Shown one piece after another: positions 490-61,407 of a DNA stretch of 64,000 bases; the first letter of the stretch is position 1, and every line of letters begins with the position of its first letter. The stretch comes from Niastella populi. Lineage in GTDB: Bacteria; Bacteroidota; Bacteroidia; Chitinophagales; Chitinophagaceae. The DNA lies in contig NZ_LWBP01000156.1 in the NCBI RefSeq assembly GCF_002078015.1, positions 62,001 to 126,000 of the forward strand, read 5' to 3'. The notes under the pieces were generated by a model. That model searched no databases and was not told the origin of the DNA. It saw only the letters and a list, made by a program, of their open reading frames with translations. A program made the translations under genes and the position numbers.

Positions 490-530
490 CTACTTCGACA
501 TTCAAAATTCATTATTTGATATTCGACATT
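490..530 (-). repeat. 7-bp period repeat across the lipA stop codon
   Basis: Read on the minus strand, the units are AATGTCG, AATATCA, AATAATG, AATTTTG, AATGTCG. They encode the last lipA residues (MSNIK), include its TAA, and continue into the gap. Related degenerate units continue to about 450. Confidence 0.75.
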
Positions 531-1450
531 TCTTTTTGCTTCAACCATTGTTCTTTGCCGTAACCCGGTATTACATGGCGTTCGCTGTGGTAGGAAGAAC
601 GAACGAGCGGACCGCTTTCTACATAATCAAGCCCCATATTGTAGCCGGCTTCGCGGTATTCGGCAAATTCATCGGGATGTACAAACCGTACAACCGGTAA
701 ATGCTTTTTGGTGGGTTGCAGGTACTGGCCAATTGTAATAACGTCTACCCCGCTGTTGGCCAGGTCGCGGATCGTTTGCAGTACTTCTTCTTTTGTTTCA
801 CCCAAACCGAGCATGATACCGCTTTTGGTACGCATACCACCTTCTTTCAGCATCTTCAGCACTTCCATGCTGCGGCGGTATTTGGCCTGAATACGTACCT
901 GGCGGGTAAGGCGCTCAACGGTTTCTATATTGTGCGATACTACTTCAGGCGCTGCGTCGATAACACGTTGTACATCTTCGGCCCTGCCTTTGAAGTCGGG
1001 GATCAGCGTTTCGAGCGTAGTATCGGGATTTAATGCTTTTACGGCTTTGATGGTATTGTGCCAGATGATGCTGCCGCCGTCTTTCAGTTCGTCGCGGTCA
1101 ACAGAGGTGAGTACGGCGTGTTTCACCTTCATGAGGTGAATGGCTTCCGCCACGCGTTGCGGTTCGTCCCAATCAACGGCTTCGGGCCGGCCGGTGGCCA
1201 CCGCGCAGAAACCGCAGCTTCGGGTGCACACATTACCAAGGATCATAAATGTTGCCGTGCCTTCGCCCCAGCATTCGCCCATATTCGGACAATTGCCGCT
1301 TTCACAAATGGTGTGGAGTTTATGTTGGTCAACCAGGTTGCGTACGTGCCGGTAGTTTTCACCGGTGGGTAATTTTACGCGCAGCCAGTTGGGCTTCTTT
1401 ACTACGGAAGTTGATTCATTTACACTACTGATAACGGGTAATTCCTGCAT
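512..1450 (-). CDS. lipA: Lipoyl synthase
   Basis: Radical-SAM enzyme that inserts two sulfurs into octanoyl groups on lipoyl-dependent proteins. The auxiliary cluster cysteines are C49, C54 and C60 ([12 protein letters not shown]) and the radical-SAM cysteines are C75, C79 and C82 (CTRSCGFC). The C-terminal RSSYHSER near residue 284 carries the conserved serine ligand. At 312 residues it is a normal length. The last residues (MSNIK) are encoded by a 7-bp tandem repeat that runs through the stop codon, so the tail is probably not functional. A possible TATATTTG -7 box ends only about 5 bp before the ATG, but no -33 box is visible. Confidence 0.97.
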
Positions 1451-1627
1451 ATGTCAAATATATTCTGATTAAACCTTTGGGTGTTCCCTAACCAGGTATT
1501 ATAACATCCCAAAACCCAAAAGGTTGCTGACGCTGATATAACAAATTGATATTTAGTAACCTACTGGACTAGTGTTGACTATTAGCGTACAAAAATAAAG
1601 AAAAATGAGGGAATAAGGTAGATATAG

Positions 1628-1745
1628 GCAACGAGGCAACGAGGAATAGCGACAGGCTTCGGGTTACGCGTATACAGGTAAAAGTTGAAAGGCGAAAACA
1701 GCATACAGCTTAAAGCCGAAAGCCGGAAGGCGGGAGCGAAATACG
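1628..1745. repeat. Two short 7-8-bp period repeats in the lipA upstream gap
   Basis: The 471-bp gap 1451-1921 holds no gene. At 1628-1644 the 8-mer GAGGCAAC repeats. At about 1683-1740 there is a degenerate 7-mer series of the AAAGCCG/GAAGGCG type. Similar GGCAAC units recur at 1889-1917 and near 59155. Confidence 0.6.
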
Positions 1746-1844
1746 GAATTTAGCCTACAGGGAAAGCTAATATTGGCTGAAAGCTAATGCGGGGACTTTA
1801 TTGGCTTTAGGGGCTTTTGCCTTTCGGCCGGGGCCCCAAAATAA

Positions 1845-1878
1845 AAAGTGAGCCCCCTTTTAAAGAGAAGCTCACTTT
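1845..1878 (-). terminator. Rho-independent terminator after the gene ending at 1922
   Basis: AAAGTGAGC and GCTCACTTT form a 9-bp stem. On the minus strand it is followed by a T-rich tail, as expected for a transcript leaving the 1922-2725 gene. A repeat copy (GGCAACGAG) lies between the stop codon and the hairpin. Confidence 0.75.
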
Positions 1879-1921
1879 AGTATTTAAACTCGTTGCCTTT
1901 ATGCCTCGTTGCCTTTTTCTT

Positions 1922-2725
1922 CTAATTCTTTCGCCGCCCCAGCAGCAAAGATATATATGCGTTGAAGAAAAAGCTTTTTTCGGGGTTATAGGTCATCTGC
2001 GCCACTTTTCCGAAATAGTATTCGGCATTTAATCCCACCTCGATAGCCGAAACGGTTTCATTGAACCGGCCATAGTCGAACCGCAGCGCACCCTTGGCCG
2101 AAAGACCGAATTTCGGCTGCACCTTGTCCCACCCTACAGTAAAACCTGAAGCGCCCTGCTCGATATAGCCGCTATCGATAATCGTGGGATAGGTTTTGCG
2201 GTACCGTTGCTGGGCATTGTCTATAACGTCAACAAAATAGGGTTTTTGCAATCCAACAGCAAGCCCGCCGGTATACACGGCCATAACCGCTACCCCGTTC
2301 TTGTTGCCTTTACCGCCGATGATGCGTTGCTGGCCGGCGTTCAGCTTTACCTGGTAGAAGTTGTTCAGTTTACCGTAAATAACGCTGTTGAAATTAAACC
2401 CGTTCAGGAGTGAAGTGCGTTTTTCTTTCTTATGCTTTTTCTCATTGATCTCTATCTGAAAGATATTTGCCACCCGGGCGCTTTTGAACCGCCCGATCTC
2501 ATAAGAAAGCCCATAGCCGTCGGTATTTAATTTTATTCCGAAAGCGCTTTGTTTACTAAAAATGATCTCTCCTTCTTCCTCCTGCTTAAGCAGGTTATTG
2601 ATCCTTTCACGTTTCGCGGCCTGTCTGTCTTTTTTTGCTGTCGGTGATTTGGGAGTTGGATTATCCTGCGCCCGCAAATTGGATGCAAGCATACCAGCCA
2701 AAAGGAACAAAACTAATTTCTTCAC
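1922..2725 (-). CDS. Unknown exported protein, probably outer-membrane associated
   Basis: 267 residues. A signal peptide (MKKLVLFLLAGMLASNLRAQ) is followed by a Lys/Gln-rich charged stretch to about residue 55. After that come alternating aromatic and polar segments ending in a hydrophobic strand (FFFNAYISLLLGRRKN), which suggests a small beta-barrel or periplasm-facing outer-membrane protein. I do not recognise the family. Its start is only 49 bp from the divergent OsmC-like gene, so the two may share a control region. It has its own terminator. Confidence 0.8.
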   Translation of the reverse strand: MKKLVLFLLAGMLASNLRAQDNPTPKSPTAKKDRQAAKRERINNLLKQEEEGEIIFSKQSAFGIKLNTDGYGLSYEIGRFKSARVANIFQIEINEKKHKKEKRTSLLNGFNFNSVIYGKLNNFYQVKLNAGQQRIIGGKGNKNGVAVMAVYTGGLAVGLQKPYFVDVIDNAQQRYRKTYPTIIDSGYIEQGASGFTVGWDKVQPKFGLSAKGALRFDYGRFNETVSAIEVGLNAEYYFGKVAQMTYNPEKSFFFNAYISLLLGRRKN

Positions 2726-2774
2726 TGGCTATGATTTGATTATTAAACGTAAATTTAAGGTAAAAATATACATA

Positions 2775-3203
2775 ATGACCTCAACAGTAGTTTACGAAGG
2801 AAATCTGAGAACGGTTTGTACCCATTTAAAATCCGGATCCGTTATTGAAACCGATGCGCCGCTGGATAACCAGGGGCTGGCTGAGCGGTTTTCGCCCACC
2901 GATATGGTGGCAACTGCGCTAGGAACCTGTATGCTAACAATTATGGGTATCAAAGCCCGTGATATGAACCTCGATATAAAAGGCATTAAGATCGATGTGG
3001 AGAAGATCATGAAGGCCGATCCTCGCCGTATTGGTGGTATAAATTTAACATTTCATTTTCCCGATTCCCTGCGGGTCGACGAAAAACAAAAGACCATACT
3101 GGAACGTGCAGCCCAAACCTGCCCTGTTATGTACAGCATTCATCCCGATATTGAAGTGAACATAGTCTTCAATTGGCAACTGGCAGTAAGCAATGGACAA
3201 TAG
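2775..3203 (+). CDS. OsmC/Ohr-family redox protein
   Basis: 142 residues from the ATG at 2775; the frame is open further upstream but that part overlaps the divergent gene. OsmC-family proteins reduce organic hydroperoxides using two cysteines. The first is in ATALGTCMLTIMGI (about residue 55) and the second in AAQTCPVMYSIHPDIEV (about residue 117). The domain normally ends at the DIEVNIVF strand; the remaining NWQLAVSNGQ is encoded by a 7-bp tandem repeat and looks like a read-through extension. A strong terminator follows. Confidence 0.9.
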   Translation: MTSTVVYEGNLRTVCTHLKSGSVIETDAPLDNQGLAERFSPTDMVATALGTCMLTIMGIKARDMNLDIKGIKIDVEKIMKADPRRIGGINLTFHFPDSLRVDEKQKTILERAAQTCPVMYSIHPDIEVNIVFNWQLAVSNGQ

Positions 3204-3205
3204 GC
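3171..3205 (+). repeat. 7-bp repeat forming the 3' end of the OsmC-like gene
   Basis: The units are AATTGGC, AACTGGC, AGTAAGC, AATGGAC, AATAGGC. They encode the last ten residues, and the fifth unit contains the TAG stop. A related TTGCCTG/TTGTCTG series lies at about 3243-3260. Confidence 0.7.
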
Positions 3206-3274
3206 CGGTTGTAGTTCTATTCGAATTTAATATTATTTGCATATTGCCTGTTGTCTGTTGCAGTCAGGCAGAGG

Positions 3275-3498: not shown

Positions 3499-4890
3499 AT
3501 GAAAAAATGGTCATCGCTCCTTTTCTTCAGTTTATTTTTCATTGCCGCTCATGCTGCGATCCGTTTGCCCGCTGTTATCAGCAGTAACATGGTACTGCAA
3601 CAACAGTCAACCGTAAAATTATGGGGCTGGTGCAGTCCCTGGGAAAAGATCGCCATTACCACTTCCTGGAATAACAAAACCGATTCGTTAAAAGGTACCC
3701 GCGATGCCAACTGGGTGCATTCCATTCAAACGCCGGCTGCCGGCGGTCCGTTCACCATCACTATCTGGGGCAGCAATACAGCTGCGCCTGTTGTGCTGGA
3801 AAATGTACTGATAGGTGAAGTGTGGGTTTGTTCGGGACAAAGCAATATGGAATGGAATTATTATAACAAACTGCCCGATATTGCCGCCGAATTACCTACC
3901 TGCTACAATAAGAATATCCGTTTCTTTCATATTCCCAAAACAACGGCCGTAACGCCGCAGGACGATTGTGCCGCCAAATGGACCATCTGCGATTCAAATA
4001 CGCTCAAGTTCTTCAGCGCCGTTGGTTATTTCTTTGGAAAAAAGCTGAACCAGGACCTGAATGTGCCTGTTGGCCTGGTGAATTCAAGCTGGGGTGGAAC
4101 GCCCGCCGAGGTTTGGACTCCCGAAGCAAAGGTGAACAACGATGCGGAGCTGAAAGCCAGTGCCGCCAAACTAAAGCCTGATGCCCGCTGGCCACTTACA
4201 CCAGGGTATACCTACAATGCCATGATCGCTCCTATTATTAATTATGGCATTGCCGGCGCCATCTGGTACCAGGGCGAAAGCAATGTTGAAATGTATGATA
4301 CCTACACGAAGTTGTTTACAACCATGATCGATAGTTGGCGTAAGGCATGGAACAAAGAGTTTCCTTTTTACTATGTACAGATCGCACCTTACCGGTATGG
4401 TGTTCCGTTGACCGGCGCCCTGTTGCGCGAAGCGCAAACAAAGGCCATGAGCCACCCGAATACCGGCATGGTGGTTATTACCGACCTGGTGGCCGATACC
4501 GGTAATATTCACCCGACCAACAAACATGATGTGGGCGCCCGCCTCGCCAACTGGGCCCTGCACGATACCTATAAAAAAGAAGGAATTGTGTATAAAAGTC
4601 CCATGTATAAAAGCATGGAAGTAAAAAAAGGCAAAGCATATCTCAGTTTCGATAATGCGCCAGCCGGTTTAATGGCGAAGGGAAAAAAGGTAACCGAGGT
4701 ATATGTGGCCGGCAGCGATAAACAGTTTTATCCCGCAGAGGCGAAGATCGAGAACAACCAGCTGGTGGTTTTCAGTAAACAGGTGAAAGAGCCCGTTGCC
4801 GTCCGGTATGGATTTACCAATACCGCTGTAGGAAACTTGTTCGGAAAAGAAGGATTACCGGTAAACCCGTTCAGGACAGACAATTGGTAG
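3499..4890 (+). CDS. Sialate O-acetylesterase (SASA/SGNH-type)
   Basis: 463 residues from ATG 3499, chosen because it begins the signal peptide [19 protein letters not shown]. Enzymes of this type remove O-acetyl groups from sialic acids or plant polysaccharides in the periplasm or outside the cell. The nucleophile motif GQSNMEW lies at about residue 115, the WYQGESN block (oxyanion hole) at about 255, and a late HPTNKHDVG block supplies the likely catalytic His. An immunoglobulin-like C-terminal part follows. It is transcribed alone, with a very strong hairpin downstream. The exact substrate cannot be read from sequence. Confidence 0.9.
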
Positions 4891-4918
4891 ATACCGTTTG
4901 GGGTTTGGGTTTGTTGTT

Positions 4919-4959
4919 AATTGCCGGATTTATTAGAATACCTAATAAATCCGGCAATT
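4919..4959 (+). terminator. Long perfect hairpin after the acetylesterase
   Basis: AATTGCCGGATTTATTAG pairs perfectly over 18 bp with its copy at 4942-4959 across a 5-nt loop. The tail on the plus strand is A/T rich (TATAATTT). It may work in both directions. Confidence 0.75.
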
Positions 4960-5002
4960 ATAATTTCGGCAGGTGGCTGCAATTAATTCGAAACGTGAGA
5001 AT

Positions 5003-5088
5003 GCGAAGCAACCACAAACCATCAACTTTCGGGTGGATGCCTTTAATTAGCAACTTCGACTTGCGAAGCAACCACAAACCACAAACTA
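5003..5088 (-). repeat. ACCACAA-type repeats abutting the CBS gene stop
   Basis: On the minus strand the CBS gene stop TAG begins the series TAGTTTG, TGGTTTG, TGGTTGC (5066-5088). A second copy of GCGAAGCAACCACAAACC lies at about 5003-5020. The same ACCACAA units occur just upstream of the gene at 59271. Confidence 0.75.
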
Positions 5089-5544
5089 ATAAATCCTTCC
5101 TCTTCCCTCGGCGGTTTTGATCAATTCTTCGGCAAGGGTGTCATCAAACACTTCGGCCTTGTTGGCCAACACTTCCCTGAGAATATCGTGAATGGTGATA
5201 ATTCCCATAAACTTTTTGTCATCGATGGCTACCAGGTAGCGGGCTTTGCTCCTTATCATCAGGATCATACAATGCTCCACCGTTTCCTCGGGGCCTACCA
5301 CCGGTAAATCGGTGGTCATAACTTCGTGTACATGGGCTTCCCTGCTACTGCGGCCTTTTAAAACTACATTCCGGCTGTAATCCTTTTCCGAAAAAACGCC
5401 GCTGTACCTGTCACCGTCCATTACTATCAGGTAACTCAGGTTTACCTGTTCAAGCAGATGCAATGCATCGATCACCAGCGCTCCTGGCTGTATGATGTTC
5501 TCCGGACGTGGTTTGCTGGCAATAAGGTCGTCTACCGTTCTCAT
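5086..5544 (-). CDS. CBS-pair domain protein
   Basis: 152 residues made almost entirely of two CBS motifs (about residues 10-65 and 75-135), with the usual LIVMDGDRYSGVFSEKDY and YLVAIDDKKFMGIITIHDIL strands. CBS pairs bind adenine nucleotides and act as energy or ion sensors. With no attached enzyme domain, the target is unknown. The stop codon starts a 7-bp repeat. The 218-bp divergent region with the acyl-CoA-binding protein gene contains ATGATTAAAATCAT (5587-5600), an inverted repeat that could be an operator. Confidence 0.9.
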   Translation of the reverse strand: MRTVDDLIASKPRPENIIQPGALVIDALHLLEQVNLSYLIVMDGDRYSGVFSEKDYSRNVVLKGRSSREAHVHEVMTTDLPVVGPEETVEHCMILMIRSKARYLVAIDDKKFMGIITIHDILREVLANKAEVFDDTLAEELIKTAEGRGRIY

Positions 5545-6096: not shown

Positions 6097-6098
6097 AA

Positions 6099-12789: not shown

Positions 12790-13851
12790 TTATGATTGTC
12801 CAAAAATATGTTTCAATTGTTTTATTTCTTCTTCTGAAAGCATTTGATTTTTTAATTTTTTCCAGTTCCCGATATCTCTCAGCGCTTTTTCGAATTCGTA
12901 AAGGCTGAGCCCCTTGTTGCCCCAGGTAAAGCTGGGAATGAATTTGGGTGGAATGCCCTCGCCAAAAACGTTGGCGCAAATGCCTACCACGGTACCGGTA
13001 TTGAAAGAGGTATTGATGGCCGCCCGGGAGTAATCGCCCATTATTAGTCCGCATTTCAACCCTACCCGCATGTAGTCGCGGCTATGGAAATGCCACACGC
13101 TCACGTCACTGGCCGTGTTCTTTATATTTGAATTGGAGGTTCCGGCACCCAGGTTGCACCACTCGCCTATCACCGAATCGCCCAAATAACCATCGTGGGC
13201 TTTATTTGAATAGCCGAGCAGAACAGTGTTTTTGACCTCGCCCCCGATCATGCTGTACGGACCAACAGTAGTAGCCCCGTACACTTTGGCGCCCATTTTT
13301 ACCAGCGCGCCCTCGCCCATGGCAAAAGGCCCGCGGATAAGCGCTCCTTCCATGATCTCGGCATTCTTTCCAATATAAATAGGGCCGGTGGATGCATTCA
13401 GGACGCAATGATTCAGCATGGCCCCCGGTTCAATAAAGATATTGCCCGGGTTGGTGGTGAGAACCGTTTCCGGAATGGCAGCCGATTGCCGGTTTTTTGT
13501 AATCAATTGAAAATCTTCACGTAAGGCCCAATCATTCCATTGAAATATATGCCAGGGGTACTGCAGGATCTTTACCTGGCTGTAATCGGGCTCACCGGTA
13601 GGCTCGCCACTGGCATCGAAAATTGACTTAACAAAGCCGGCTGTTGGCAGAATATTGGCGGCAAAAACAATGGCGTCGGCAGGCGCCTGTTCGTTGCTTT
13701 TAAGTAAGGTTACAGGTCGCTGCAGCAATGCTTCCCATTTTTGCCTGATGGTGAGAATACCGATACGGATCTCGGCCGCATGGCGGGTTTGGGCAAAAGG
13801 AAAGAGGTGATCTGCCACTTCTTTATCGGAAAGGAATACCCGTTTGTTCAT
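12790..13851 (-). CDS. GlmU-like putative sugar nucleotidyltransferase
   Basis: 353 residues. The N-terminal part (LFPFAQTRHAAEIRIGILT) is the reduced nucleotidyltransferase domain seen in Bacteroidota GlmU-family proteins. From about residue 150 there is a left-handed beta-helix of hexapeptide repeats (IYIGKNAEIMEGALIRGP and after), as in acyltransferases acting on sugar nucleotides. The enzyme probably makes an activated sugar for the envelope; substrate unknown. The start codon lies inside a unit of a 7-bp tandem repeat (13846-13952), leaving no normal leader. Confidence 0.85.
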   Translation of the reverse strand: MNKRVFLSDKEVADHLFPFAQTRHAAEIRIGILTIRQKWEALLQRPVTLLKSNEQAPADAIVFAANILPTAGFVKSIFDASGEPTGEPDYSQVKILQYPWHIFQWNDWALREDFQLITKNRQSAAIPETVLTTNPGNIFIEPGAMLNHCVLNASTGPIYIGKNAEIMEGALIRGPFAMGEGALVKMGAKVYGATTVGPYSMIGGEVKNTVLLGYSNKAHDGYLGDSVIGEWCNLGAGTSNSNIKNTASDVSVWHFHSRDYMRVGLKCGLIMGDYSRAAINTSFNTGTVVGICANVFGEGIPPKFIPSFTWGNKGLSLYEFEKALRDIGNWKKLKNQMLSEEEIKQLKHIFGQS

Positions 13852-13952
13852 AGTTTTCTGTTTACAGTTCTCAGTTCATAGTTCACAGTTCATAGTTCAC
13901 AGTTCATAGTTCACAGTTCATAGTTCACAGTTCATAGTTCACAGTTCATAGT
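13846..13952 (-). repeat. GTTCATA/GTTCACA array that includes a start codon
   Basis: On the plus strand the phase runs GTTCATA (13846-13852, its CAT is the start codon of the minus-strand gene), GTTTTCT, GTTTACA, GTTCTCA, then regular alternating GTTCATA and GTTCACA for about 80 bp. It is the same unit as the 402-bp array at 52521. Confidence 0.85.
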
Positions 13953-14168
13953 TTCGGTGCCCGTTTCGCAGTTTCAACACATGGCTTTTAATGACTGGCC
14001 CTTTAAGGATGAGCGCCCAAACTTAATTCATTTTGCCCTTATCTACGTATGCACCCATATTTACACGACACCGCCGCATTTTTGGATGGTAGCGGCGGTC
14101 TGTTCTTGGTTGCACTGATAAATATCCTGTTTGCTCCGGTACGTTTTCTATTTGTTATGGTATGTTTT

Positions 14169-14421
14169 CTGTCAGCGCGAACACCACGCTGACAGATTTT
14201 GACCATTTTCTGTCAGCGCGAACACCACGCTGACAGATTTTGACCATTTTCTGTCAGCGCGAACATCGCGCTGACAGATTTCGGCCATTTTCTGTCAGCG
14301 CGAACACCGCGCTAACAGATTTCGACCTCGCGCTAACAGATTTGACCCAATTTCTGTCAGCGCAGACAATGCGCTAACACATTTCAGCTGTTTACTATCA
14401 GCACAAACACTGCGCTAACAG
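14169..14421 (-). repeat. 41-bp tandem array of 27-bp imperfect hairpins
   Basis: Units begin at 14169, 14210, 14251 and 14292 (exact 41-bp period), then there is a half unit at 14329-14339 and further units at 14354 and 14395. Each is CTGTCAGCGCG, a 5-nt loop, CGCGCTGACAG or a variant, separated by 14 bp close to ATTTTGACCATTTT. Only copy 3 is a perfect 11-bp palindrome. The remaining gene-free stretch to 15044 shows weak inverted repeats near 14685-14715 but nothing I can name. Confidence 0.85.
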
Positions 14422-14965
14422 GTTTGGACCCATTTCAATTGACACCGGTGCTGTAACAGTTCCAATGGCCAGCAAAGTTTCCATGAAAAGCCCGGCAAAA
14501 ACCAAAACTACCCGAAAAATGATGCCGGCAACAGGTAACGGTCCACGTTTCCGGTTTAAAAAAGATAAATCAACTAATCATGATAGCCTGCCGGAAGGCG
14601 AACAGTTGAAAGCAAACACCTGCAATGCAAAATGACCTGGCAATGGCCGGCAATACACAGGCAGCGTCATGAATTCGAAAAGCATCAACTGATAAGCAGC
14701 ACACAGTTTATCAATTAACAATGCGCATTAATTAAAGCGAGACTTTAAACCGGGTGAAGTAATTCGGGAATACTTTATCACATTTATGAAATGTATAAAT
14801 GACACAATTAGCCACGGGCATATTGTTCAGGAAAAAGCGCAATAAATACGAACAGGTGTAAGTATAATAAAACAATAGAAGCAGGAGTGCAGTGAGTTAA
14901 AGGAGTATTAACGAATGCCAGGCAATAAAACGAATTAATAGACGCGTTATTGAATTGTTGTAGAA

Positions 14966-16370: not shown

Positions 16371-16421
16371 AGCGATAGTTTAATGTGCTTAAAAGTATAC
16401 GAAGCACGAAAATAAGCAATG

Positions 16422-16627
16422 TTAATGTGATAATTCGATAATGTGATAATGTGATAATGAAATTGGGTGGGTGCTTCGTAACAGCTTTGGTGATATTAAA
16501 GTTAATGTGATAGTTCGATAATCCAGCAGGGCGTTACAGGTTGTGCTAATGAATACAGTTTTGTGGATGCTTTTGCGCGAGCCTGTATTCCATTGGCTAA
16601 TTATCACATTAGCTAATTATCGAATTA
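16422..16627 (-). repeat. TAATGTGA/TAATTCGA 8-bp repeats after the 16625 receptor gene
   Basis: From the receptor stop codon outward (minus strand) the units are TAATTCGA, TAATTAGC, TAATGTGA, TAATTAGC, CAATGGAA, with the first TAA being the stop itself. Three more units of the same family lie at 16422-16458 and about two at 16502-16522. GGAATACAG joins the blocks. Confidence 0.8.
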
Positions 16628-19117
16628 ATTTTGCCCCCCTCCTGCCCGGTTCTGTTCTTCAGTAGCCCCGGTATTTCTTTTTCTTGCCTGCGCTACCGAC
16701 GATTTTCCAAACCGGTAACTGAACGTGGCTGTAATATTTCTATTATCCCACCGGTTGAAAATGCTTACATCTATATCGCTGTATAAAGTGCGCCCCCTGA
16801 ACTGCTGCCAGTGGAACGGGTCGCGTACATTCAGGCGCAGCGTGCCCTTACCCTTTATGATCGCTTTCTGAACCCCGAGGTTCATAAAGTACATAGGGTC
16901 GGCAATGGTCAGCTGTTCGATGGTTTTGCCCCGGTAAAAACCGCTCACTTCCCCACTCCATCCTTTTTTAAAGCTAAAAGTGTTGCTTATGTTCACCAGG
17001 GCCGAAGTATAGCTGATGTCTATAGGATCGTTGTTACCAGTGAATGAATTAAAATAAACGCCTTCATAACGGTTGTTGAATACGTTTACAAAGAGGTTCA
17101 CATTCCAGTTCTTTACCACGGTGAACGGCGCATTTATAGCCAGCCCTATATTCTTGAACCGCGCTACGTTATCGGTTGTAAGAAAAGTGATCCTTTTTTC
17201 GGTATTCTGTTTTAATAACTGTGAAATTACATCGTCTGTGATCGTATAATTGATGGTTGTGGTAAACCGCCCTTTTAGGGTATGCCGCAGTTCAATATTA
17301 TTAGCGTATTGCGGCAACAGGTATGGGTTGCCCTGGCGGTATTGTAACGAATCGAGGAACCAGATGAACGGGTTCAGGTCCTGGTAATTGGGCCGCTCTA
17401 TACGCCGGCCGTATGATAACGTGAACGAATGATTTTTGCTGGCTTCATAGTTCACATACATGGTTGGGAACAAACTGGTGTAATTCCGGGTAAAGTTGCT
17501 GTCATTGGTTACCTGATTTCCCCTGGCTATCGTATTTTCTGCACGCAGGCCCACCTGCCCGCTCCATTTCTTCCATTTTTTATTAAGGCTTACATAGCCT
17601 GCATTTATGTTCTCGCGGTATATGAAGTGGTTCGAACGGTCATCGGGTTGAATGGTGCCGTTATCGCTGCGTTCATAAATTACTTCATTGTCGTTTTTTA
17701 CATAGCTTACCTTAAACCCCGCATCAAAACGCAGGTTGTTTTTAAGCGGATGCACATAGTCGGCCTTCGCTGAATAAATATTGATGAGGCCGGGGATATC
17801 GCCAAACAGGGCGAGGTTACCAAGCGTATTGCCGCCATAGCCATCATAAATGGTTGTAAGCAGCGTGGTTTTTGCGTTATTGCTGTATCCTATATAATCC
17901 AGGTCGGCAGTAAGTTCACGGCCTGTTGAATCGAAAGTGTGTTTGTAATTGAAGTTGGCTGAATAATTAAAGAAATTATTCCTGTTGGTGGTATTGGATT
18001 CCAGCACCTGTTCAATAGTGCCGTCGGGCCGGCTGATGGCCTGTACGCTGTACGGGGCGGGACGGCCAAAAAATCCAAAGCCATTCAACACCACGCCGAA
18101 GATGTTCTTTTTATCGGCATAATAATCGAAGCCAGCTTTTAATGTCTGGTTATTATTGCGAAAATTAAAATCGGTTCGTGAAGAGGATGTGGAGTTCAAT
18201 GAACCGTCCTTCTCGAAGAAGCGGCGGGTAAGTTCAAGACTTCCTTTTCCATCGCGATAGTTGTAGTTATAGTTGGCGAACAGGTTCCATTTGCCTTTAC
18301 GGTAATTGAGGTTGACACTGGTGGTGGAACGTAAAGGCGCGTACCAGGTATCGCGACGTTTGAATATACCTACCGTTCCGCCCAGGGTTATACTGCCATT
18401 CAACCCTTCGGTAAGGCTTTTCTTTGTTTTTATATTGATGATGCCCGAATTGCCACTGGCATCGTACCGGGCGGGCGGATTGGTCATGATCTCTATTTGA
18501 TCGAGCGCCGATGCCGGCAGGTTCTTCAGTACATTGGCGAGGTCGGCCGGTGACAAATAAGTGGGTTTGCCATCGAGCATGATACGCACCCCCTGTTTGC
18601 CTTTTAAACTTATTTCGCCTTCATTACTAACGGTAACGCCGGGCGATTTCTCCAATACTTCAAGCGCCGATGCGCCGGCATTGGTAGGCGCCGCTTCTAC
18701 ATTCACTACCATTCGATCGATCTTGTTTTCAATAAGCGGCCTTTTACCGGTTACTGTAACAGCGCCCAACGTTTTGGCCGCAGATCTTTGTAATTGAAAG
18801 GAAGGTAATTTAAAAAGTGATGTACCTGAAACCGTAAAACGTTTGCTGTTTGTTTTGTTAAAGCCAACCGCGGTAACGATCACAAAATATTCGCCTTCGG
18901 TAAGGTTGTCAAATTCGAAAAGTCCGTATTTGTCGCTCACAGCCACTTTTACCAGCGATGAATCTTTTGCCCGCTGCAATGAGGCCGTTGCCGATTCAAC
19001 GGCTTGTGCATCGGTATCGGTTACTACGCCGCTGATTTTGCCCGACTTATTTTGTGCTGAAACTACAGTTGAAAGAAAACATAATAAACCCATTAACCAT
19101 GTAGATCTGTTTTTCAT
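16625..19117 (-). CDS. Outer-membrane beta-barrel receptor with carboxypeptidase-like domain
   Basis: 830 residues. A signal peptide (to about residue 22) is followed by a carboxypeptidase regulatory-like fold (GKISGVVTDTDAQAVESATA), a plug-like domain (VLEKSPGVTVSNEGEISLKG, then DQIEIMTNPPARYDASGNSG) and a long barrel ending in TATFSYRFGKSS. It belongs to the outer-membrane beta-barrel family related to TonB-dependent receptors but without SusC features or a SusD neighbour. The ligand is unknown. It is a paralog of the gene at 19926-22391. Confidence 0.9.
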   Translation of the reverse strand: MKNRSTWLMGLLCFLSTVVSAQNKSGKISGVVTDTDAQAVESATASLQRAKDSSLVKVAVSDKYGLFEFDNLTEGEYFVIVTAVGFNKTNSKRFTVSGTSLFKLPSFQLQRSAAKTLGAVTVTGKRPLIENKIDRMVVNVEAAPTNAGASALEVLEKSPGVTVSNEGEISLKGKQGVRIMLDGKPTYLSPADLANVLKNLPASALDQIEIMTNPPARYDASGNSGIINIKTKKSLTEGLNGSITLGGTVGIFKRRDTWYAPLRSTTSVNLNYRKGKWNLFANYNYNYRDGKGSLELTRRFFEKDGSLNSTSSSRTDFNFRNNNQTLKAGFDYYADKKNIFGVVLNGFGFFGRPAPYSVQAISRPDGTIEQVLESNTTNRNNFFNYSANFNYKHTFDSTGRELTADLDYIGYSNNAKTTLLTTIYDGYGGNTLGNLALFGDIPGLINIYSAKADYVHPLKNNLRFDAGFKVSYVKNDNEVIYERSDNGTIQPDDRSNHFIYRENINAGYVSLNKKWKKWSGQVGLRAENTIARGNQVTNDSNFTRNYTSLFPTMYVNYEASKNHSFTLSYGRRIERPNYQDLNPFIWFLDSLQYRQGNPYLLPQYANNIELRHTLKGRFTTTINYTITDDVISQLLKQNTEKRITFLTTDNVARFKNIGLAINAPFTVVKNWNVNLFVNVFNNRYEGVYFNSFTGNNDPIDISYTSALVNISNTFSFKKGWSGEVSGFYRGKTIEQLTIADPMYFMNLGVQKAIIKGKGTLRLNVRDPFHWQQFRGRTLYSDIDVSIFNRWDNRNITATFSYRFGKSSVAQARKRNTGATEEQNRAGGGQN

Positions 19118-22391: not shown

Positions 22392-22600
22392 GGTTCTTTT
22401 ATTGGTTGTGAATACTTTGCTTAATAGATTACAGTTCAAAAGTAGGTACTATGCAATCTAAAGTACCTGATTTTGTGTCTGCCGGTTGTTTTTACTGATA
22501 TCCGGAAATAACAGGTATGCAGGTAGGACGTATTGCCGGTCCCGGAGTTACAGTAACATGGTGGTTTGGGATGAATGGCGGGAAAGCCGGTTAGCCGGCT

Positions 22601-22736
22601 GTTCAGTTGTTCAGTTGTTCAGTTGTTCAGTTGTTCAGTTGTTCAGTTGTTCAGTTATTCAGTTGTTCAGTTATTCAGTTATTCAGTTATTCAGTTATTC
22701 AGTTATTCAGTTATTCAGTTATTCAGTTATTCGGTT
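22601..22736. repeat. 8-bp array with two unit types
   Basis: Seventeen units of [G/A]TTCAGTT in exact register: seven G-type, one A, one G, then eight A-type with the last one mutated (ATTCGGTT). It lies in the 440-bp gap between the receptor start and the lgt terminator. The rest of that gap shows no gene. Confidence 0.9.
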
Positions 22737-26859: not shown

Positions 26860-26945
26860 TTAGCTAATGTACTAATGGAATACAGGTAATGTGGGTGCTG
26901 CGCATGTGCAATTGATTAATGTGCTAATTTGATAATTCGATAGTC
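26857..26945 (+). repeat. TAAT-type 8-bp repeat starting at a stop codon
   Basis: TAATTAGC, TAATGTAC, TAATGGAA with the first TAA being the stop of the 25549 gene, then GGAATACAG and further units TAATGTGC, TAATTTGA, TAATTCGA at about 26918-26941. Confidence 0.8.
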
Positions 26946-26999: not shown

Positions 27000-27027
27000 A
27001 TTATCACATTATCGAATTATCACATTA
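27000..27027 (-). repeat. TAATGTGA/TAATTCGA repeat at the 27025 stop codon
   Basis: Minus strand: TAATGTGA, TAATTCGA, TAATGTGA, TAATTACA. The first TAA is the stop codon of the NTF2-like gene, and TAA then recurs every 8 bp in all three frames. Confidence 0.85.
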
Positions 27028-27516
27028 TTTTTCACAAACCTTCCGCCGTGTATCAATCAGGAAATGGATCTTCCAGCCGTCTTCGAGCCTTACCAGGTGA
27101 AAAGAATTGACGCCGCAATGGCGGAACTTGCCTTTGTAATAGAACTCGTAGGGCGTCCATACCACAGCAAGCGGGCCATCGATAAGAATAGTGCCGAACT
27201 GAATGCGTTCATCGGCCTCCCCTGATTTCTGCTGACCGGTAATTTTTACAAAGTCGGCGAACTTTTCGCTTCGTACATACACCTTCTTCTTCTTATTGGT
27301 AGCAACGGTGTTCAGGATGGGCTCGGCGGTAAATGCAGATTTCAGCACCGTGGTATCGGCGTTCTTCATGCCTTCAAACAACCGGTTAATGGTGGCTTTC
27401 ACCGAATCTTCCGTTGTTGGGGAATCTTCGGTTGTTGGGGCCTTCGCCTCTTCCTGCGCCCGCACTGCGCCTGTTATGGCCGTAAGTATCGTAAATAATA
27501 TTGCAAATCGTTTCAT
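27025..27516 (-). CDS. Exported NTF2-like (SnoaL/lumazine-binding-like) protein
   Basis: 163 residues with a signal peptide ending VRAQ and a short duplicated linker (TTEDSPTTEDS). The rest has the cone-shaped NTF2-like pattern: a helical start (INRLFEGMKNADTTVLKSAF) and strands such as GPLAVVWTPYEFYYKG and VNSFHLVRLEDGWKIHFLID. Family members are often annotated as putative lumazine-binding. No catalytic residues can be assigned. It follows the arginine decarboxylase gene by 25 bp in the same direction. Confidence 0.82.
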   Translation of the reverse strand: MKRFAILFTILTAITGAVRAQEEAKAPTTEDSPTTEDSVKATINRLFEGMKNADTTVLKSAFTAEPILNTVATNKKKKVYVRSEKFADFVKITGQQKSGEADERIQFGTILIDGPLAVVWTPYEFYYKGKFRHCGVNSFHLVRLEDGWKIHFLIDTRRKVCEK

Positions 27517-34291: not shown

Positions 34292-34415
34292 TAATTCGAT
34301 AATTCGATAATGGAATACAAATTTTGAGCATGGAATACAGATTCCACGCGCAAGCACTCACAGCTGCTGTATTTCCATTAGCACATTAGCACATTAGCTA
34401 ATTATCACATTAGCA
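34289..34415 (+). repeat. TAATTCGA and ACATTAGC 8-bp repeats
   Basis: After TAG come TAATTCGA, TAATTCGA, TAATGGAA and two GGAATACA linkers. At 34376-34413 the ACATTAGC unit repeats about four times with TAATTATC. It occupies most of the gap between the two paralogous genes. Confidence 0.8.
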
Positions 34416-43002: not shown

Positions 43003-45258
43003 ATGGTCACATTCAAAAGATACAAACCCATACTGGTTTGTTTGTTTTTACTGGTTCAAACGGCTACGGCCCAGCCTCCGGCTCCCCAACGCCCCCGGAT
43101 AGGCGTAACCCTGAGCGGCGGCGGCGCCAAAGGGCTAGCGCATATCGGTATTCTGAAAGCTATCGACAGCGCCGGTCTGAACGTCGATTATATAACCGGC
43201 ACCAGTATGGGCAGCATCATCGGCAGCCTGTATGCCATTGGTTATACCGCCGACAGTATTGAAAAGATCACCCGCACTATCGATTGGGACCTGCTGCTCA
43301 GTAACCAGTCTTCCCTCCGCAGCATTTTCATGGAAGAAAAAGACGAGTATTCAAAATATGTGATAGAACTTCCCTGGCAAAACCACAATTTCCGCCTTCC
43401 CAGCGGTCTGCTGCAGGGCCAGGAATTATGGCTGAAATTCTCAGAGCTCTATTTTCCCGTTCACCAGCAAAAAGACTTTTCGCGGTTCAGTATTCCGTTC
43501 CGCTGCATTGGTACCGATGTGGGCAATGGCGAGGCCGTTGTTATGAAGGAAGGTGAAATTATTTCCGCTATCCGTTCAAGCATGGCCATCCCATCGGTAT
43601 TTACCGCCGTTGATTTCAATGGCCGCCGCATGGTCGATGGCGGTGTAGTACGCAATTTTCCCGTGCGTGACGTAAAAGAAATGGGCGCCGATATTGTCAT
43701 AGGCAGTAATGTGGCCAGTGGACTGTTACCATCTGAAAAAGTGCGCAACGCATTACAGATCTTACTACAGATCGCATTTTTCAGGGAGGCGGAAGACGCC
43801 AAAACCGAAGTGCCGCAATGTGATATTTATATTCCATTCAAAATGGAAAAGTATAACATGGGCAGCTTCAACGACGGCGGCGCCATACTTGACCTTGGTA
43901 TTGAAGAAGGCCGCAAATTATACCCGCGGTTCAAACGGCTGGCCGATTCGCTGAATGCGATCTATGGGCCCGCCCCGCTAAAAAAGAACCGCCTGCCGCA
44001 CGTAAACTCGGTGGTTATTTCATCATTTGAAGTACATGGGGTGGAGAAAACTTCTACCGAGTTCTTTGTACATACCATGGACCTGCAACTGGGTAAAACC
44101 TACAATGCGCACAGGCTCTCGAACATGGTGCGCCAGGCATATGGCACCCGCTATTACAGCCGTATTATTTACTCGCTGGTACCAAAACCCGATGGCACCT
44201 GTAAGATCATTTTTGATGTAACGGAAAACCCGTTCACCTTTGCCAAACTGGGTATCCATTACAACCGGTTTACGGGTGTTGGTATTATCGGCAACCTCAC
44301 AGCCCGCAATTTTTTCATAACCAATTCACGCAGCCTGGTTACCATCAATATCGGGGAAAGTTTTCGCATCCGCGGCGAGCACCTGCAATACATTGGCCGG
44401 TTAAAGAATTTTGCGCTGGTGGCCGAAACCCAGTTCGACCGTTTTGAAGTGAATACGTATGACCAGTACAAACAGGATGGACTATACAAACAAACCTTTT
44501 TCAAAGTAGGCGAAAAGCTGCAGTTCTCCCCTACCCGTAATTTTTCCATTGGCGCCGGCCACCGGTTCGAATGGGTGCATTATACGCCCAAGATCTCAAA
44601 AGGCGTAGAGTTCAGGGGAAGCAATAATTATAATACCTTGTTTGGGTTTATATCCCATAACTCGCTCGATAAGGCTATTTTTCCGCGGCGGGGAGTGAAG
44701 GTGTATGGTGAGGCCGGACGGGTTTTTGAGCAGCACCCGAACCTTGATTTCCTTTCCGACGGGGTGCCTATCAATCCCGATTCAGACACAACACGCATCA
44801 ACACGTATCCTTACCTGCGCACTACGCTCGATGTGGAAAGTTATATTCCCATTGGCCGCCGGACCACTTTTCTTTTGAGCGGACAGGGTGGTATAAACTT
44901 CAACTATACGCGGAATGTGTTGAATGAATTTGCGATCGGCGGTCTTACCAAGGTTTTCCGTAACCAGATAACGTTTGCCGGTTTACAGGAAGGCACGTTG
45001 TATACGCCTTCCGTGGCCATGTTACAGGGCGGTGTTCGGGTAAATGTGTTTGCCAATTCATACCTTACCGGTAAGGCCAATGTATTGTTCACCAATTTTG
45101 TAAGCAAAAGCGCCTTCTTCAATAACCCCGATTTTCTTTCAGGCTATTCATTGACCTTCTCGTATAACTTTGCACTGGGCCCCCTTGAAATAAGCACCAT
45201 GTACTGCGATCAAACGAATAAACTGCAATGGTATATTAATTTAGGAATTCCCTTTTAA
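43003..45258 (+). CDS. Patatin-like phospholipase fused to POTRA and beta-barrel (type Vd-like)
   Basis: 751 residues. Signal peptide to about residue 24 (TATA), then patatin domain with the oxyanion hole GGGAKGLAHIG (residues 39-49), nucleophile S68 (GTSMG) and catalytic Asp in MVDGGVVRNFPV (about 212). After about residue 340 comes a POTRA-like domain (FEVHGVEKTSTEFFVHTM), then an Omp85-type barrel ending in a terminal Phe (INLGIPF). This is the architecture of PlpD-like type V secretion proteins. The stop begins a 7-bp repeat. Confidence 0.92.
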   Translation: MVTFKRYKPILVCLFLLVQTATAQPPAPQRPRIGVTLSGGGAKGLAHIGILKAIDSAGLNVDYITGTSMGSIIGSLYAIGYTADSIEKITRTIDWDLLLSNQSSLRSIFMEEKDEYSKYVIELPWQNHNFRLPSGLLQGQELWLKFSELYFPVHQQKDFSRFSIPFRCIGTDVGNGEAVVMKEGEIISAIRSSMAIPSVFTAVDFNGRRMVDGGVVRNFPVRDVKEMGADIVIGSNVASGLLPSEKVRNALQILLQIAFFREAEDAKTEVPQCDIYIPFKMEKYNMGSFNDGGAILDLGIEEGRKLYPRFKRLADSLNAIYGPAPLKKNRLPHVNSVVISSFEVHGVEKTSTEFFVHTMDLQLGKTYNAHRLSNMVRQAYGTRYYSRIIYSLVPKPDGTCKIIFDVTENPFTFAKLGIHYNRFTGVGIIGNLTARNFFITNSRSLVTINIGESFRIRGEHLQYIGRLKNFALVAETQFDRFEVNTYDQYKQDGLYKQTFFKVGEKLQFSPTRNFSIGAGHRFEWVHYTPKISKGVEFRGSNNYNTLFGFISHNSLDKAIFPRRGVKVYGEAGRVFEQHPNLDFLSDGVPINPDSDTTRINTYPYLRTTLDVESYIPIGRRTTFLLSGQGGINFNYTRNVLNEFAIGGLTKVFRNQITFAGLQEGTLYTPSVAMLQGGVRVNVFANSYLTGKANVLFTNFVSKSAFFNNPDFLSGYSLTFSYNFALGPLEISTMYCDQTNKLQWYINLGIPF

Positions 45259-45277
45259 CGCCGAACGCTGAACGCGG
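45256..45277 (+). repeat. TAACGCC/GAACGCT repeat from the stop codon
   Basis: TAACGCC, GAACGCT, GAACGCG with the first TAA being the stop codon. A related series (GCTGAAT, GCTGAAC, GCTTAAC) lies near 19832-19858. Confidence 0.7.
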
Positions 45278-52520: not shown

Positions 52521-52943
52521 GTTCACAGTTCATAGTTCACAGTTCATAGTTCACAGTTCATAGTTCACAGTTCATAGTTCACAGTTCATAGTTCACAGTT
52601 CATAGTTCACAGTTCATAGTTCACAGTTCATAGTTCACAGTTCATAGTTCACAGTTCATAGTTCACAGTTCATAGTTCACAGTTCATAGTTCACAGTTCA
52701 TAGTTCACAGTTCATAGTTCACAGTTCATAGTTCACAGTTCATAGTTCACAGTTCATAGTTCACAGTTCATAGTTCACAGTTCATAGTTCACAGTTCATA
52801 GTTCACAGTTCATAGTTCACAGTTCATAGTTCACAGTTCATAGTTCACAGTTCATAGTTCACAGTTCATAGTTCACAGTTCATAGTTCACAGTTCATAGT
52901 TCACAGTTCATAGTTCACAGTTCGTAGCTTATAGTTTAGGGGT
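52521..52943. repeat. 402-bp perfect 14-bp (7+7) tandem array
   Basis: GTTCACA and GTTCATA alternate without visible error from 52521 to about 52922 (about 29 copies of the 14-mer), then decay into GTTCGTA, GCTTATA, GTTTAGG. The 677-bp gap 52342-53018 holds nothing else that I recognise. The array is the same family as at 13846, which is about 38.7 kb away. Confidence 0.95.
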
Positions 52944-57112: not shown

Positions 57113-57118
57113 ACTATT

Positions 57119-57607: not shown

Positions 57608-57614
57608 AAAAATA

Positions 57615-59140: not shown

Positions 59141-59151
59141 AATTAATACGC

Positions 59152-59270
59152 AAGGCAAAGGCAACAAGGCATAGAGGCAACGGGCGCCCGATAGCGGGAG
59201 GCTGCATTTTCTTATGAGTGTAGGGTGGAGACAACAACAAACCACAAACAACAAACCACAAACTAATAAT
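59152..59270 (+). repeat. AAGGCAAC and ACCACAAAC repeats before the oxidoreductase gene
   Basis: At 59152-59180 AAGGCAA-type units; at 59230-59267 AACAACAAACCACAA-type units run to 4 bp before the ATG at 59271. The second family is the same as at 5062-5088. Confidence 0.7.
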
Positions 59271-60464: not shown

Positions 60465-60516
60465 TTGTGACGAAATAAACCCCGCGGATTTTTTCCCGGA
60501 AAGCAGCGAATTCCGC

Positions 60517-60524
60517 TATTTTTG
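60517..60524 (+). promoter_or_regulatory. Probable -7 box of the Skp/OmpH gene
   Basis: TATTTTTG matches TAnnTTTG exactly, 25 bp before the ATG; the -33 region is only TTTTCC. Confidence 0.5.
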
Positions 60525-60549
60525 CGGTCCAATAATTAAACCCACGAAC

Positions 60550-61113
60550 ATGAAAAGGCAATTTGTAGCAATAGTTGTAATATTTACCATAGGTCTGCTG
60601 GCAAACGCACTCCAGGCAGATGCACAAAACAAGATCGGTTACATAAGCTTGCAGGAGCTGGTTAGCGCCATGCCCGAATACAAAAAAGCCCAGCTCGATA
60701 TGCAGGAATACCAGAAAGCGCTGGTTCAGCAGGGAAATGATTACCAACAGGCGTTTATGGCAGATCAGAAAAAGTTTGTAGAAGACTCTATAAAAATGAC
60801 GCAGGCGGTAAAAGAAGTAAAGCGCAAAGCATTGAATGAACTATATTTAAAATGGACCAACTTCGTTAACCAGGAAGCGCAGCAAATGATGAACCAGCAC
60901 GAACAGGAACTGCTGGCTCCTATTCAGGAAAAAGCGGTTAACACTTCACAGGCTGTAGCCAAAGAGAACGGGTACGCGTATATTCTGCCTAAAGAGCAAT
61001 TGATCGCTTTCCCCGCCGCCGACGATATTTTACCGCTGGTTTTCAAAAAACTGAACATTTCACCAGCTAAAGATGCACCGGCAACAGCTGCACCGAAGGC
61101 CGGTGGTAAATAG
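60550..61113 (+). CDS. OmpH/Skp-family periplasmic chaperone
   Basis: 187 residues with signal peptide (ends ADAQ), NKIGYISLQELVSAMPEYKK at the mature start, and two long helices (about residues 50-130) that form the tentacles of Skp. It holds outer-membrane proteins in the periplasm. An Ala/Pro/Lys tail follows the domain. Transcribed alone, with a strong terminator 60 bp on. Confidence 0.93.
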   Translation: MKRQFVAIVVIFTIGLLANALQADAQNKIGYISLQELVSAMPEYKKAQLDMQEYQKALVQQGNDYQQAFMADQKKFVEDSIKMTQAVKEVKRKALNELYLKWTNFVNQEAQQMMNQHEQELLAPIQEKAVNTSQAVAKENGYAYILPKEQLIAFPAADDILPLVFKKLNISPAKDAPATAAPKAGGK

Positions 61114-61173
61114 TAATATGACTGCTCCTGTTTTAAAGACAGGCAAACTCAATATAAGTTACTGAGGTAAGAG

Positions 61174-61226
61174 GCAGGAAGTAAGAAGTACGGGGGATTC
61201 CCGTATTTCTTATTTCCTGCTTTTTT
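61174..61226 (+). terminator. Long hairpin terminator of the Skp/OmpH gene
   Basis: Arms of 21 nt (61174-61194 and 61200-61220) pair with few G-U steps around a 5-nt loop, and six T follow. The stem itself is built from AAGTAAG/AAGTACG repeat-like units. Confidence 0.88.
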
Positions 61227-61373
61227 ATTTTGTACCCCGCCATTTAGCACGCGTTTCAAATATCAGGACCTTCTTGTCTGGTGCAGGGTGCCGGGCGATT
61301 TCTTCCTCTATCAACTGTATCACCTCAATCAACCTTTCAACTATTGATCAGATTGTTGAACAGAGGCAAACCT

Positions 61374-61407
61374 TGTCAACCCGTCAACAAGTCAACCCGT
61401 CAACTTA
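61374..61407 (-). repeat. GTTGACGG/GTTGACTT repeat at the phosphomutase stop
   Basis: Minus strand: TAAGTTGA, CGGGTTGA, CTTGTTGA, CGGGTTGA. The first TAA is the stop codon; a stop triplet (TGA) recurs every 8 bp, so all three frames close. Confidence 0.8.

What the first reader, a model, noticed from the sequence alone, without database searches (positions are those of the whole stretch)
490..61407. Repeat units start in register with gene stop codons
At eleven gene ends the repeat contains or overlaps the stop codon: 512, 3203, 5086, 6017, 16625, 26859, 27025, 34291, 45258, 48708 and 61405. Examples: TAATGTGA-TAATTCGA-TAATGTGA at 27025, TAACGCC-GAACGCT at 45258 and TAGTTTG-TGGTTTG at 5086, where the first TAA or TAG is the stop. 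Four further genes have a repeat within 15 bp. The stop seems to seed the unit. Because 7 and 8 are not multiples of 3, a unit that contains a stop triplet places it in all three frames; this occurs within 24 nt at 16625, 26859, 27025, 34291 and 61405, which could guard against read-through or frameshift.
Basis: partly seen in the sequence, partly recalled or inferred. Interest (0 to 1): 0.78.

Follow-up and report, generated by a model that had tools for sequence, protein, structure and literature searches.

The report
Paired repeat arrays abutting stop codons
In this soil bacterium and its relatives, short 7- or 8-letter DNA repeats pile up where genes end and often come as mirror-image pairs; the stop codon is mostly the border of the repeat, not its seed, and what the repeats do is still unknown.

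Summary
The window is from a Niastella-like member of the Chitinophagaceae. The stop triplet is in register in 12 of 90 stop-proximal arrays, the stop usually predates the array, and the excess of stop triplets vanishes when each unit family counts once. Two other Chitinophagaceae genomes show the same layout; sampled E. coli has no array. It closely resembles published GGGAATC repeats of Xanthomonas, but with many families and no G3-quadruplex pattern. Function is inferred only.

The parts
4896..4912 (+). period-7 GTTTGGG array 5 nt after the stop of gene 3499-4890(+); probable left arm of a pair with 5070-5086
   Evidence: (partner score 10 for the region)
5070..5086 (-). GTTTGTG array overlapping the stop (TAG) of gene 5086-5544(-); right arm of that pair
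   Evidence: (score 10)
13853..13953 (+). 14.4-copy period-7 array (GTTCACA/GTTCATA) just upstream of gene 12790-13851(-)
16420..16459 (+). TAATGTGA/TAATTCGA period-8 array, left arm
16600..16627 (-). inverted partner arm of the same family; overlaps the stop (TAA) of gene 16625-19093(-)
   Evidence: (score 7.5)
22600..22736 (+). 17-copy TTCAGTTA-type period-8 array
26917..26942 (+). TAATGTGC/TAATTTGA array 57 nt after the stop of gene 25549-26859(+); left arm, with a terminator-like hairpin in the spacer (read by eye)
27000..27028 (-). TAATGTGA/TAATTCGA array overlapping the stop (TAA) of gene 27025-27516(-); right arm
   Evidence: score 11
34292..34311 (+). TAATTCGA array directly after the stop (TAG) of gene 33152-34291(+); left arm
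   Evidence: (score 12)
34333..34340 (+). GAATACAG: Niastella motif RAATACAG, facing CTGTATTT at 34367-34374
34376..34415 (-). inverted partner arm of the TAAT family
45257..45275 (+). AACGCCG/AACGCTG array whose first two bases are the last two of the stop TAA of gene 43003-45258(+)
   Evidence: (score 9.5)
52521..52923 (+). 57.6-copy period-7 array (GTTCACA/GTTCATA)
61375..61404 (-). GTTGACGG/GTTGACTT array directly after the stop (TAA) of gene 61405-63138(-)
   Evidence: (score 12)
63413..63508 (.). weak case, inverted by the shared 6-mer rule only: AAACGGC array, 42-nt spacer, GGTTACC array

Best explanation
These are array-armed inverted-repeat elements of gene 3' ends. DNA made of 7- or 8-nt tandem units has been added between genes, with a strong tendency to start right after an open reading frame, and often a second array of the same unit family lies inverted downstream, so the region reads arm - spacer - inverted arm. 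Shown: the period, the abutment to stops, the sense G>C bias, the inverted pairing, the greater length of array-bearing regions, and persistence of the site with replacement of the family. Inferred: arms grow and turn over by strand slippage and template switching at a unit length of 7-8 nt. Growth is tolerated only outside coding sequence, and a duplication whose first copy contains the stop leaves the protein unchanged, so the stop is the inner border and sometimes becomes the first bases of the unit. Inferred and least certain: the pair is kept because the transcript (or single-stranded DNA) can fold across the intergenic region and act as a 3'-end structure that helps end or protect the mRNA.
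For: Periods 7 and 8 dominate: 182 and 101 arrays in 139 kb of intergenic DNA; periods 4-6, 9-13 and 15 give 0-16. Pile-up at stops. Inverted pairing: 56 of 107 outermost pairs against 15 expected, 7 direct; 52 of 87 stop-proximal arrays have an inverted match in the rest of the region against 4.0 (any gene end) or 7.0 (array-bearing ends) expected, 18 direct. Divergent regions, which have no 3' end, carry arrays less often: 22 of 93 against 165 of 379, p = 4e-4. Array-bearing orthologous regions are longer in 23 of 26 comparisons, median +67 bp with 46.5 bp of array. Site persists: between-region variance of presence above all 2000 permutations in both datasets. Family differs in 87 of 123 and 50 of 62 orthologous array pairs, and still in 69 of 123 at the loosest threshold tried. 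Different partnered families at one site: 8 of 33 regions, 7 of 33 with stricter grouping at three thresholds, and 2 of 47. Canonical terminators are less frequent at array ends: 17 of 87 against 128 of 377 (p = 0.01 pooled, 0.05 convergent and 0.08 tandem alone). Replicated in G010 and G011, no array in 80 E. coli regions.
Against: The order of unit variants is not matched between arms (66 pairs, mean percentile 0.505), and own partners are no better than same-family partners of other loci (18.2 against 19.0, 40 pairs): base-by-base pairing is not tightly kept. RNA folding of the 3' region is clearly unusual only for convergent genes (median z -2.28 against -1.16; tandem -0.91 against -0.88; at most 45 sequences per class). 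In the second chromosomal region only 9 of 51 arrays have a partner, though the null is 3.4%. 44 of 107 outermost pairs are unrelated, and 105 of 472 regions have one array only. Some families counted as different share a short core such as AGTT, so drift rather than replacement is possible there. Some spacers hold a terminator of their own, so arms need not be the terminator. Longer regions have more room for arrays, which may explain part. Slippage alone does not explain why the same families recur at many loci.
Confidence: 0.5

Rival explanations
1. The elements are non-autonomous mobile inverted repeats (MITE- or REPIN-like) that insert next to stop codons; arrays are their variable arms and RAATACAG their fixed inner sequence.
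For: Added DNA at orthologous sites; inverted pairs; the same families at many loci; RAATACAG at 10.2 per 10 kb intergenic against 1.2 in Markov sequence and 1.15 in coding DNA; counted loosely, 26 convergent against 1 divergent motif pairs within 150 nt.
Against: The same count gave 285 direct motif pairs, so the motif is not mainly an inverted-end signal. Masked intergenic regions share little: 49 of 472 fall in BLAST clusters, 25 of them with arrays. RAATACAG is not enriched in the sampled intergenic DNA of the other two genomes with arrays (0.0 and 0.76 per 10 kb). Two Y1 transposase matches in the genome. No target-site duplications were looked for.
Confidence: 0.2
2. The arrays are binding sites for a protein that reads 7-8 nt of single-stranded RNA or DNA, such as a cold-shock/OB-fold protein, one protein per unit.
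For: Matching of arms by family but not by unit order fits recognition of a unit better than exact pairing; MacGregor 2015 notes that CspB can bind heptamer repeats with weak specificity (PMC4679880, passage read).
Against: Sixteen sense families among 85 stop-proximal arrays and family differences between species would need many specificities or almost none.
Confidence: 0.15
3. Purely neutral slippage and fold-back products that accumulate wherever nothing forbids them, with no function.
For: Rare in coding DNA; long near-perfect arrays at 22600-22736 and 52521-52923 look recent; patchy across relatives.
Against: Fivefold concentration at stops over non-coding DNA further away, sense G>C bias (104 of 122), persistence of sites across species.
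Confidence: 0.2
4. One reading: the stop codon seeds the unit, and repeats guard against read-through and frameshift.
For: Stop triplet in phase in 12 of 90 and 8 of 49, above other phases; three-frame stops in 24 of 90 against 20 of 414; second in-frame stop in 48 of 90 against 157 of 414. Over all 85 arrays stop triplets exceed column-shuffled units (0.0934 against 0.0765, none of 500 shuffles as high).
Against: Minority of cases; stop mostly older than array; no clear excess of stop triplets with one array per family; 22 of 90 arrays hold no stop triplet.
Confidence: 0.05
5. G-quadruplex elements as proposed for Xanthomonas and Nostoc.
For: Same placement, strand bias and convergent pairing as GGGAATC repeats of Xanthomonas (PMC4692102, passages read); 28 of 312 arrays fit a weaker G2 pattern.
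Against: 0 of 312 sampled arrays contain a four-tract G3 pattern on either strand.
Confidence: 0.02

Closest known systems
GGGAATC heptamer repeats of Xanthomonas (Rehm et al. 2015, PMC4692102; abstract and passages read)
   Same: Intergenic; sense strand within 50 bp of the stop, including repeats that overlap the stop; antisense upstream of starts; few between divergent genes; convergent inverted pairs (70 and 75 cases); location mostly kept between two species (83%) while length varies.
   Different: One G-rich unit of 7 nt there; here many families, units of 7 and 8 nt, no G3 quadruplex pattern in the sample, and the family itself often differs at orthologous sites.
TAACTGA direct repeats of marine Beggiatoaceae, Cyanobacteria and some Bacteroidetes (MacGregor 2015, PMC4679880; abstract and passages read)
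   Same: Short intergenic tandem units; in 13 sets the repeat overlaps an upstream stop codon; stops in all three frames were noted there already; the genome here has the one-base-longer unit TAACTGAA.
   Different: Mostly upstream of starts there; the TAACTGA doublet has 0 hits in this genome, the TAACTGAA doublet 43.
Long simple sequence repeats (Mrazek 2007, seen only as described in PMC4679880) and cyanobacterial STRR heptamers (recalled)
   Same: Heptamers are the favoured unit; slippage proposed.
   Different: Stop anchoring, inverted pairing and family replacement are not in the passages I read.
Surveys of prokaryotic tandem repeats (PMC12699852 and PMC6749651; passages read)
   Same: The first reports high repeat density in Bacteroidota and a preference downstream of transcription end sites in bacteria; the second notes abundant heptamer-derived satellites in bacteria.
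   Different: The passages read do not treat inverted pairing, strand bias or stop-codon abutment.
Inverted repeats downstream of E. coli stop codons (PMC6060812, abstract and passages read)
   Same: Inverted repeats concentrate just after stops; in E. coli mostly parts of intrinsic terminators.
   Different: No tandem arrays in the arms: 0 of 80 sampled E. coli regions had an array.

Membership tests
Intergenic heptameric simple sequence repeats (LSSR/STRR) | Tandem units of 5-11 nt, mostly 7, concentrated between genes | tested here: met
   182 period-7 and 101 period-8 arrays in 517 intergenic regions; 9 and 9 in coding DNA five times as long
Xanthomonas GGGAATC repeat class | Sense-strand G-rich arrays at stops, antisense before starts | tested here: met
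   104 of 122 G>C at stops; 27 of 36 sense C>G at starts
Xanthomonas GGGAATC repeat class | Convergent inverted pairs | tested here: met
   56 of 107 outermost pairs inverted, 15 expected
Xanthomonas GGGAATC repeat class | GGGAATC unit able to form a G-quadruplex | tested here: not met
   0 of 312 arrays with a G3 pattern
TAACTGA repeats | TAACTGA as a direct heptamer repeat | tested here: not met
   0 doublets in G000
Intrinsic (Rho-independent) terminators | G+C-rich hairpin followed by a T run | tested here: inconclusive
   Found at 17 of 87 array ends against 128 of 377 others; the arms themselves were not tested as terminators
REPIN/RAYT elements | Conserved palindromic motif pair with a matching Y1 transposase (recalled) | tested here: inconclusive
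   Two PF01797 matches in the genome; RAATACAG enriched in Niastella but not in the two other genomes sampled; no link shown
Integron attC sites | Inverted 7-nt core sites at the end of a gene cassette (recalled) | not tested
   Considered only

The most novel reading that the evidence does not exclude
A dedicated, possibly enzyme-driven process writes paired inverted 7-8-nt arrays onto the ends of open reading frames in Chitinophagaceae (and perhaps Xanthomonas), and rewrites both arms together with a new unit family: gene 3' ends are marked by the architecture while the sequence itself is free to change.
Probability: 0.15. Interest if true: 0.85.

Novelty: new variant of a known kind. Interest (0 to 1): 0.55.

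Why it matters
It suggests that heptamer repeats described case by case (GGGAATC, TAACTGA) may share one architecture that does not depend on the unit: anchored on the stop codon, stranded, and paired in inverted orientation. If so, explanations tied to one sequence, such as quadruplexes or one binding protein, cannot be general, and the question becomes what acts at the end of the reading frame. Sites that persist while both arms differ in family offer a natural experiment on whether structure or sequence is under selection.

Tried and rejected
Stop supplied by the array (an open reading frame running into a stop-rich repeat): rejected as the main cause, since C-termini are the same in 118 of 166 pairs, though in 55 of 88 when the array overlaps the stop. 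G3 quadruplex: rejected for the sample. Membership with TAACTGA: rejected. Arms as exact local copies of each other: no unit-order match. RAATACAG as the universal fixed part: enriched in Niastella but not in the stretches of the two other genomes, although the longer GGAATACAGG exceeds its backward control in all 9 genomes searched. TAATGTGA as a widespread signal: its doublet is in 3 of 197 genomes of the class, G000 included. The Rfam scan at gathering thresholds and the tRNA scan of the window gave nothing. The protein query hit a large paralogous family and was not used. Integron attC was considered, not tested.

Limits: genes were called by my own codon-score script; starts are less certain than stops. 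Arrays were scored by a simple match/mismatch rule with thresholds between 4 and 9 in different calls; one search used the lowest, with its own nulls. Shuffles and Markov nulls are first- or second-order. One-per-family tests have only 16 families. The partner threshold (score 10) and family threshold (score 11) are arbitrary; one search varied the latter (8, 9, 11) for the window set only. Terminator and folding tests are small. Rows dropped: intergenic regions under 60 bp (30 bp, 40 bp), orthologous regions seen in fewer than 3 genomes, low-complexity units.
Full report
What the window is. ThrS from the window is 94% and 93% identical to that of Niastella sp. OAS944 and Niastella vici, and nine other genomes are held in its genus. 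I sampled 800 kb of the rest of the 8.6 Mb genome, called 658 genes with my own script (the same method recovered 36 of 39 annotated stops in an E. coli stretch), and treated the finding as a genome-wide statistical question.

Is it there? At the eleven named ends, nine have an array beyond the 99th percentile of 170 E. coli gene ends, and eight beyond that of 452 mid-gene points of the same genome; 3203 and 6017 fail both. In six the array overlaps the stop; at 34291 and 61405 it begins on the next base and at 26859 four bases on. Three-frame stops after the stop codon hold at four of the five named places.

Is it more than chance? Yes. Autocorrelation at 7 nt stands out in every class of intergenic DNA and at 8 nt in tandem and convergent regions (hardly in divergent ones), and neither in coding DNA. 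Of 517 intergenic regions, 173 carry a strong period-7 or -8 array, against 10 of 1,551 shuffled sequences. Aligned on 464 stops with at least 60 bp of following intergenic DNA, array starts number 12-13 per 1000 positions from -5 to +4, and 2.2-3.4 from 40 to 199 nt; on 480 start codons the same places give 1.3-2.5, with a smaller rise to 5.0 at 10-14 nt upstream.

Does the stop seed the unit? Mostly not. Using only sequence after the stop, 90 of 504 ends have an array starting within 8 nt. The own stop triplet recurs exactly one unit on in 12 of 90, against 0-6% at other phases; five relatives give 49 of 204 and 8 of 49. Counting any stop triplet, phase 0 (17%) is no better than phase 5 (16%). 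So there is a true but minority register. Orthologues show the stop in place without the array: equal C-termini in 118 of 166 pairs with one array and 368 of 482 with none, though only 55 of 88 when the array overlaps the stop (pairs among six genomes are not independent). A simple account, inferred, is that a tandem duplication whose first copy includes the stop does not alter the protein, so the stop is the innermost place where a unit may start.

Does it guard against read-through? Three-frame stops are more frequent with arrays (24 of 90 against 20 of 414; 8 of 90 on the antisense strand), as are second in-frame stops within 8 codons (48 of 90 against 157 of 414), and over all 85 stop-proximal arrays stop triplets exceed column-shuffled units (0.0934 against 0.0765). 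With one array per family this falls to 0.0874 against 0.0807, reached by 27% of shuffles. The bias goes with a sense strand poor in C (0.11 against 0.19 in array-free post-stop DNA) and with a few large families (23, 12 and 9 of 85 arrays).

What is really there. Arrays often come in inverted pairs. Among 107 regions with two or more arrays, the outermost two are inverted copies of one family in 56, direct in 7, unrelated in 44; shuffling partners gives 15 inverted; 105 further regions have one array and 260 of 472 none. From the stop side, 52 of 87 arrays have an inverted match in the remaining region and 18 a direct match, with 4.0 or 7.0 inverted expected from two nulls. On the sense strand arrays at stops have more G than C in 104 of 122 cases; at starts the sense strand has more C in 27 of 36. 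Arrays are less often found between divergent genes (22 of 93 against 165 of 379). A typical paired region reads stop - arm - spacer - inverted arm - next gene (listing; 46 of 62 regions printed). In Niastella RAATACAG is common beside arms: 140 copies in 137 kb intergenic, eight times the Markov expectation; an array ends within 10 nt on its 5' side (overlaps included) in 55 of 140 and lies that close on its 3' side in 23; motif pairs within 150 nt are 26 convergent, 1 divergent and 285 direct.

Evolution. In 33 orthologous regions around the window and 47 around a second locus, presence of an array clusters by site beyond permutation (0 of 2000 in both). Yet the family differs in 87 of 123 and 50 of 62 orthologous array pairs (random pairs share a family in 4% and 6%); with a looser threshold it still differs in 69 of 123. 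In eight regions of the first set (seven with stricter grouping, at all three thresholds) and two of the second, at least two species carry different families, each with its own inverted partner. Some of these share a short core such as AGTT, so drift cannot be excluded for them. The clearest is window 4891-5085: four partnered families among the five genomes that have a partnered pair, and, by eye, a plain hairpin in the sixth. Pairing is weaker in the second region (9 of 51, null 3.4%) than in the first (43 of 83). Regions with arrays are longer than their array-free orthologues in 23 of 26 cases; longer regions also have more room for arrays.

How wide is it? In 80 ThrS loci of named relatives, labelled mostly Chitinophagaceae, Sphingobacteriales or Bacteroidota, 41 have at least one array; pooled counts are 85 at period 7 and 32 at period 8 against 2-18 at periods 5, 6, 9-13 and 15; 39 of 46 stop-proximal arrays are sense G>C; outermost pairs are 31 inverted, 2 direct, 14 unrelated. 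Two further genomes sampled at 200 kb each repeat the picture (20 of 99 and 23 of 121 regions with an array; pairs 11 inverted and 4 unrelated, 6 and 5), and 200 kb of E. coli has none in 80 regions. Units look lineage-specific: the TAATGTGA doublet occurs in 3 of 197 genomes of the class, and the TAACTGAA doublet in 5 of 10 genomes of the genus.

Mechanism. Shown: added DNA, 7-8-nt units, stop border, strand bias, inverted pairing, site persistence with family turnover. Inferred: slippage and template switching as the writer; a folded 3' end as the reason for keeping it. Against a tightly paired hairpin: unit order is not matched between arms (66 pairs, mean percentile 0.505), own partners are no better than same-family partners elsewhere, and folding is unusual only for convergent pairs. 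In favour of a 3'-end role: fewer canonical terminators at array ends, 17 of 87 against 128 of 377 (p = 0.01 pooled, 0.05 and 0.08 by class), and depletion between divergent genes. A protein that reads the unit, or a mobile element, is not excluded.

Known relatives. Rehm et al. 2015 (PMC4692102; abstract and passages) report nearly the same geometry for one heptamer in Xanthomonas, including overlap with stops and convergent pairs. MacGregor 2015 (PMC4679880; abstract and passages) reports TAACTGA sets overlapping stops and notes stops in three frames. A 2025 survey (PMC12699852, passages) already finds bacterial tandem repeats preferentially downstream of transcription ends and a high density in Bacteroidota. 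Neither the G3 quadruplex (0 of 312 arrays) nor the TAACTGA unit applies here. The listings of my searches (most of them capped) showed no paper whose title or abstract describes such arrays in Niastella or Chitinophaga; three papers holding both 'Niastella' and 'tandem repeat' were not opened, and subscription papers are mostly not held. I therefore call it a new variant of a known kind.

Noticed in passing
window 14165-14430: Tandem 41-bp and 103-bp repeats built on CTGTCAGCGCGAACACCACGCTGACAG-like hairpins; a similar intergenic block lies at L039 7468-8399 (79% over 160 bp).
   Followed up: no
window 52521-52923 and 22600-22736: Very long, nearly perfect arrays (57.6 copies of a 7-mer, 17 of an 8-mer) that look like recent expansions.
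   Followed up: no
genome-wide, e.g. window 34333-34340: RAATACAG is strongly enriched in Niastella intergenic DNA beside arms; GGAATACAGG is 61 against 2 backward controls in the genome. Meaning unknown.
   Followed up: partly
intergenic sample, 864 kb: Period 11 is also mildly raised: 16 arrays in 139 kb against 4 in three shuffled sets.
   Followed up: no
gene 3' ends, 30-39 nt after the stop: Array starts dip to 0.43 per 1000 positions and rise to 3.2 at 40-59 nt, roughly one arm length after the first arm.
   Followed up: no
upstream of start codons, 10-14 nt: A smaller rise of array edges (5.0 per 1000 positions, 12 arrays), as if arms stop short of the ribosome-binding stretch.
   Followed up: no
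contig C187 stretches L009-L018 and L040-L044 against the window: Array presence and pairing in orthologous regions differ between chromosomal regions (24% against 48%; partner 9 of 51 against 43 of 83).
   Followed up: no
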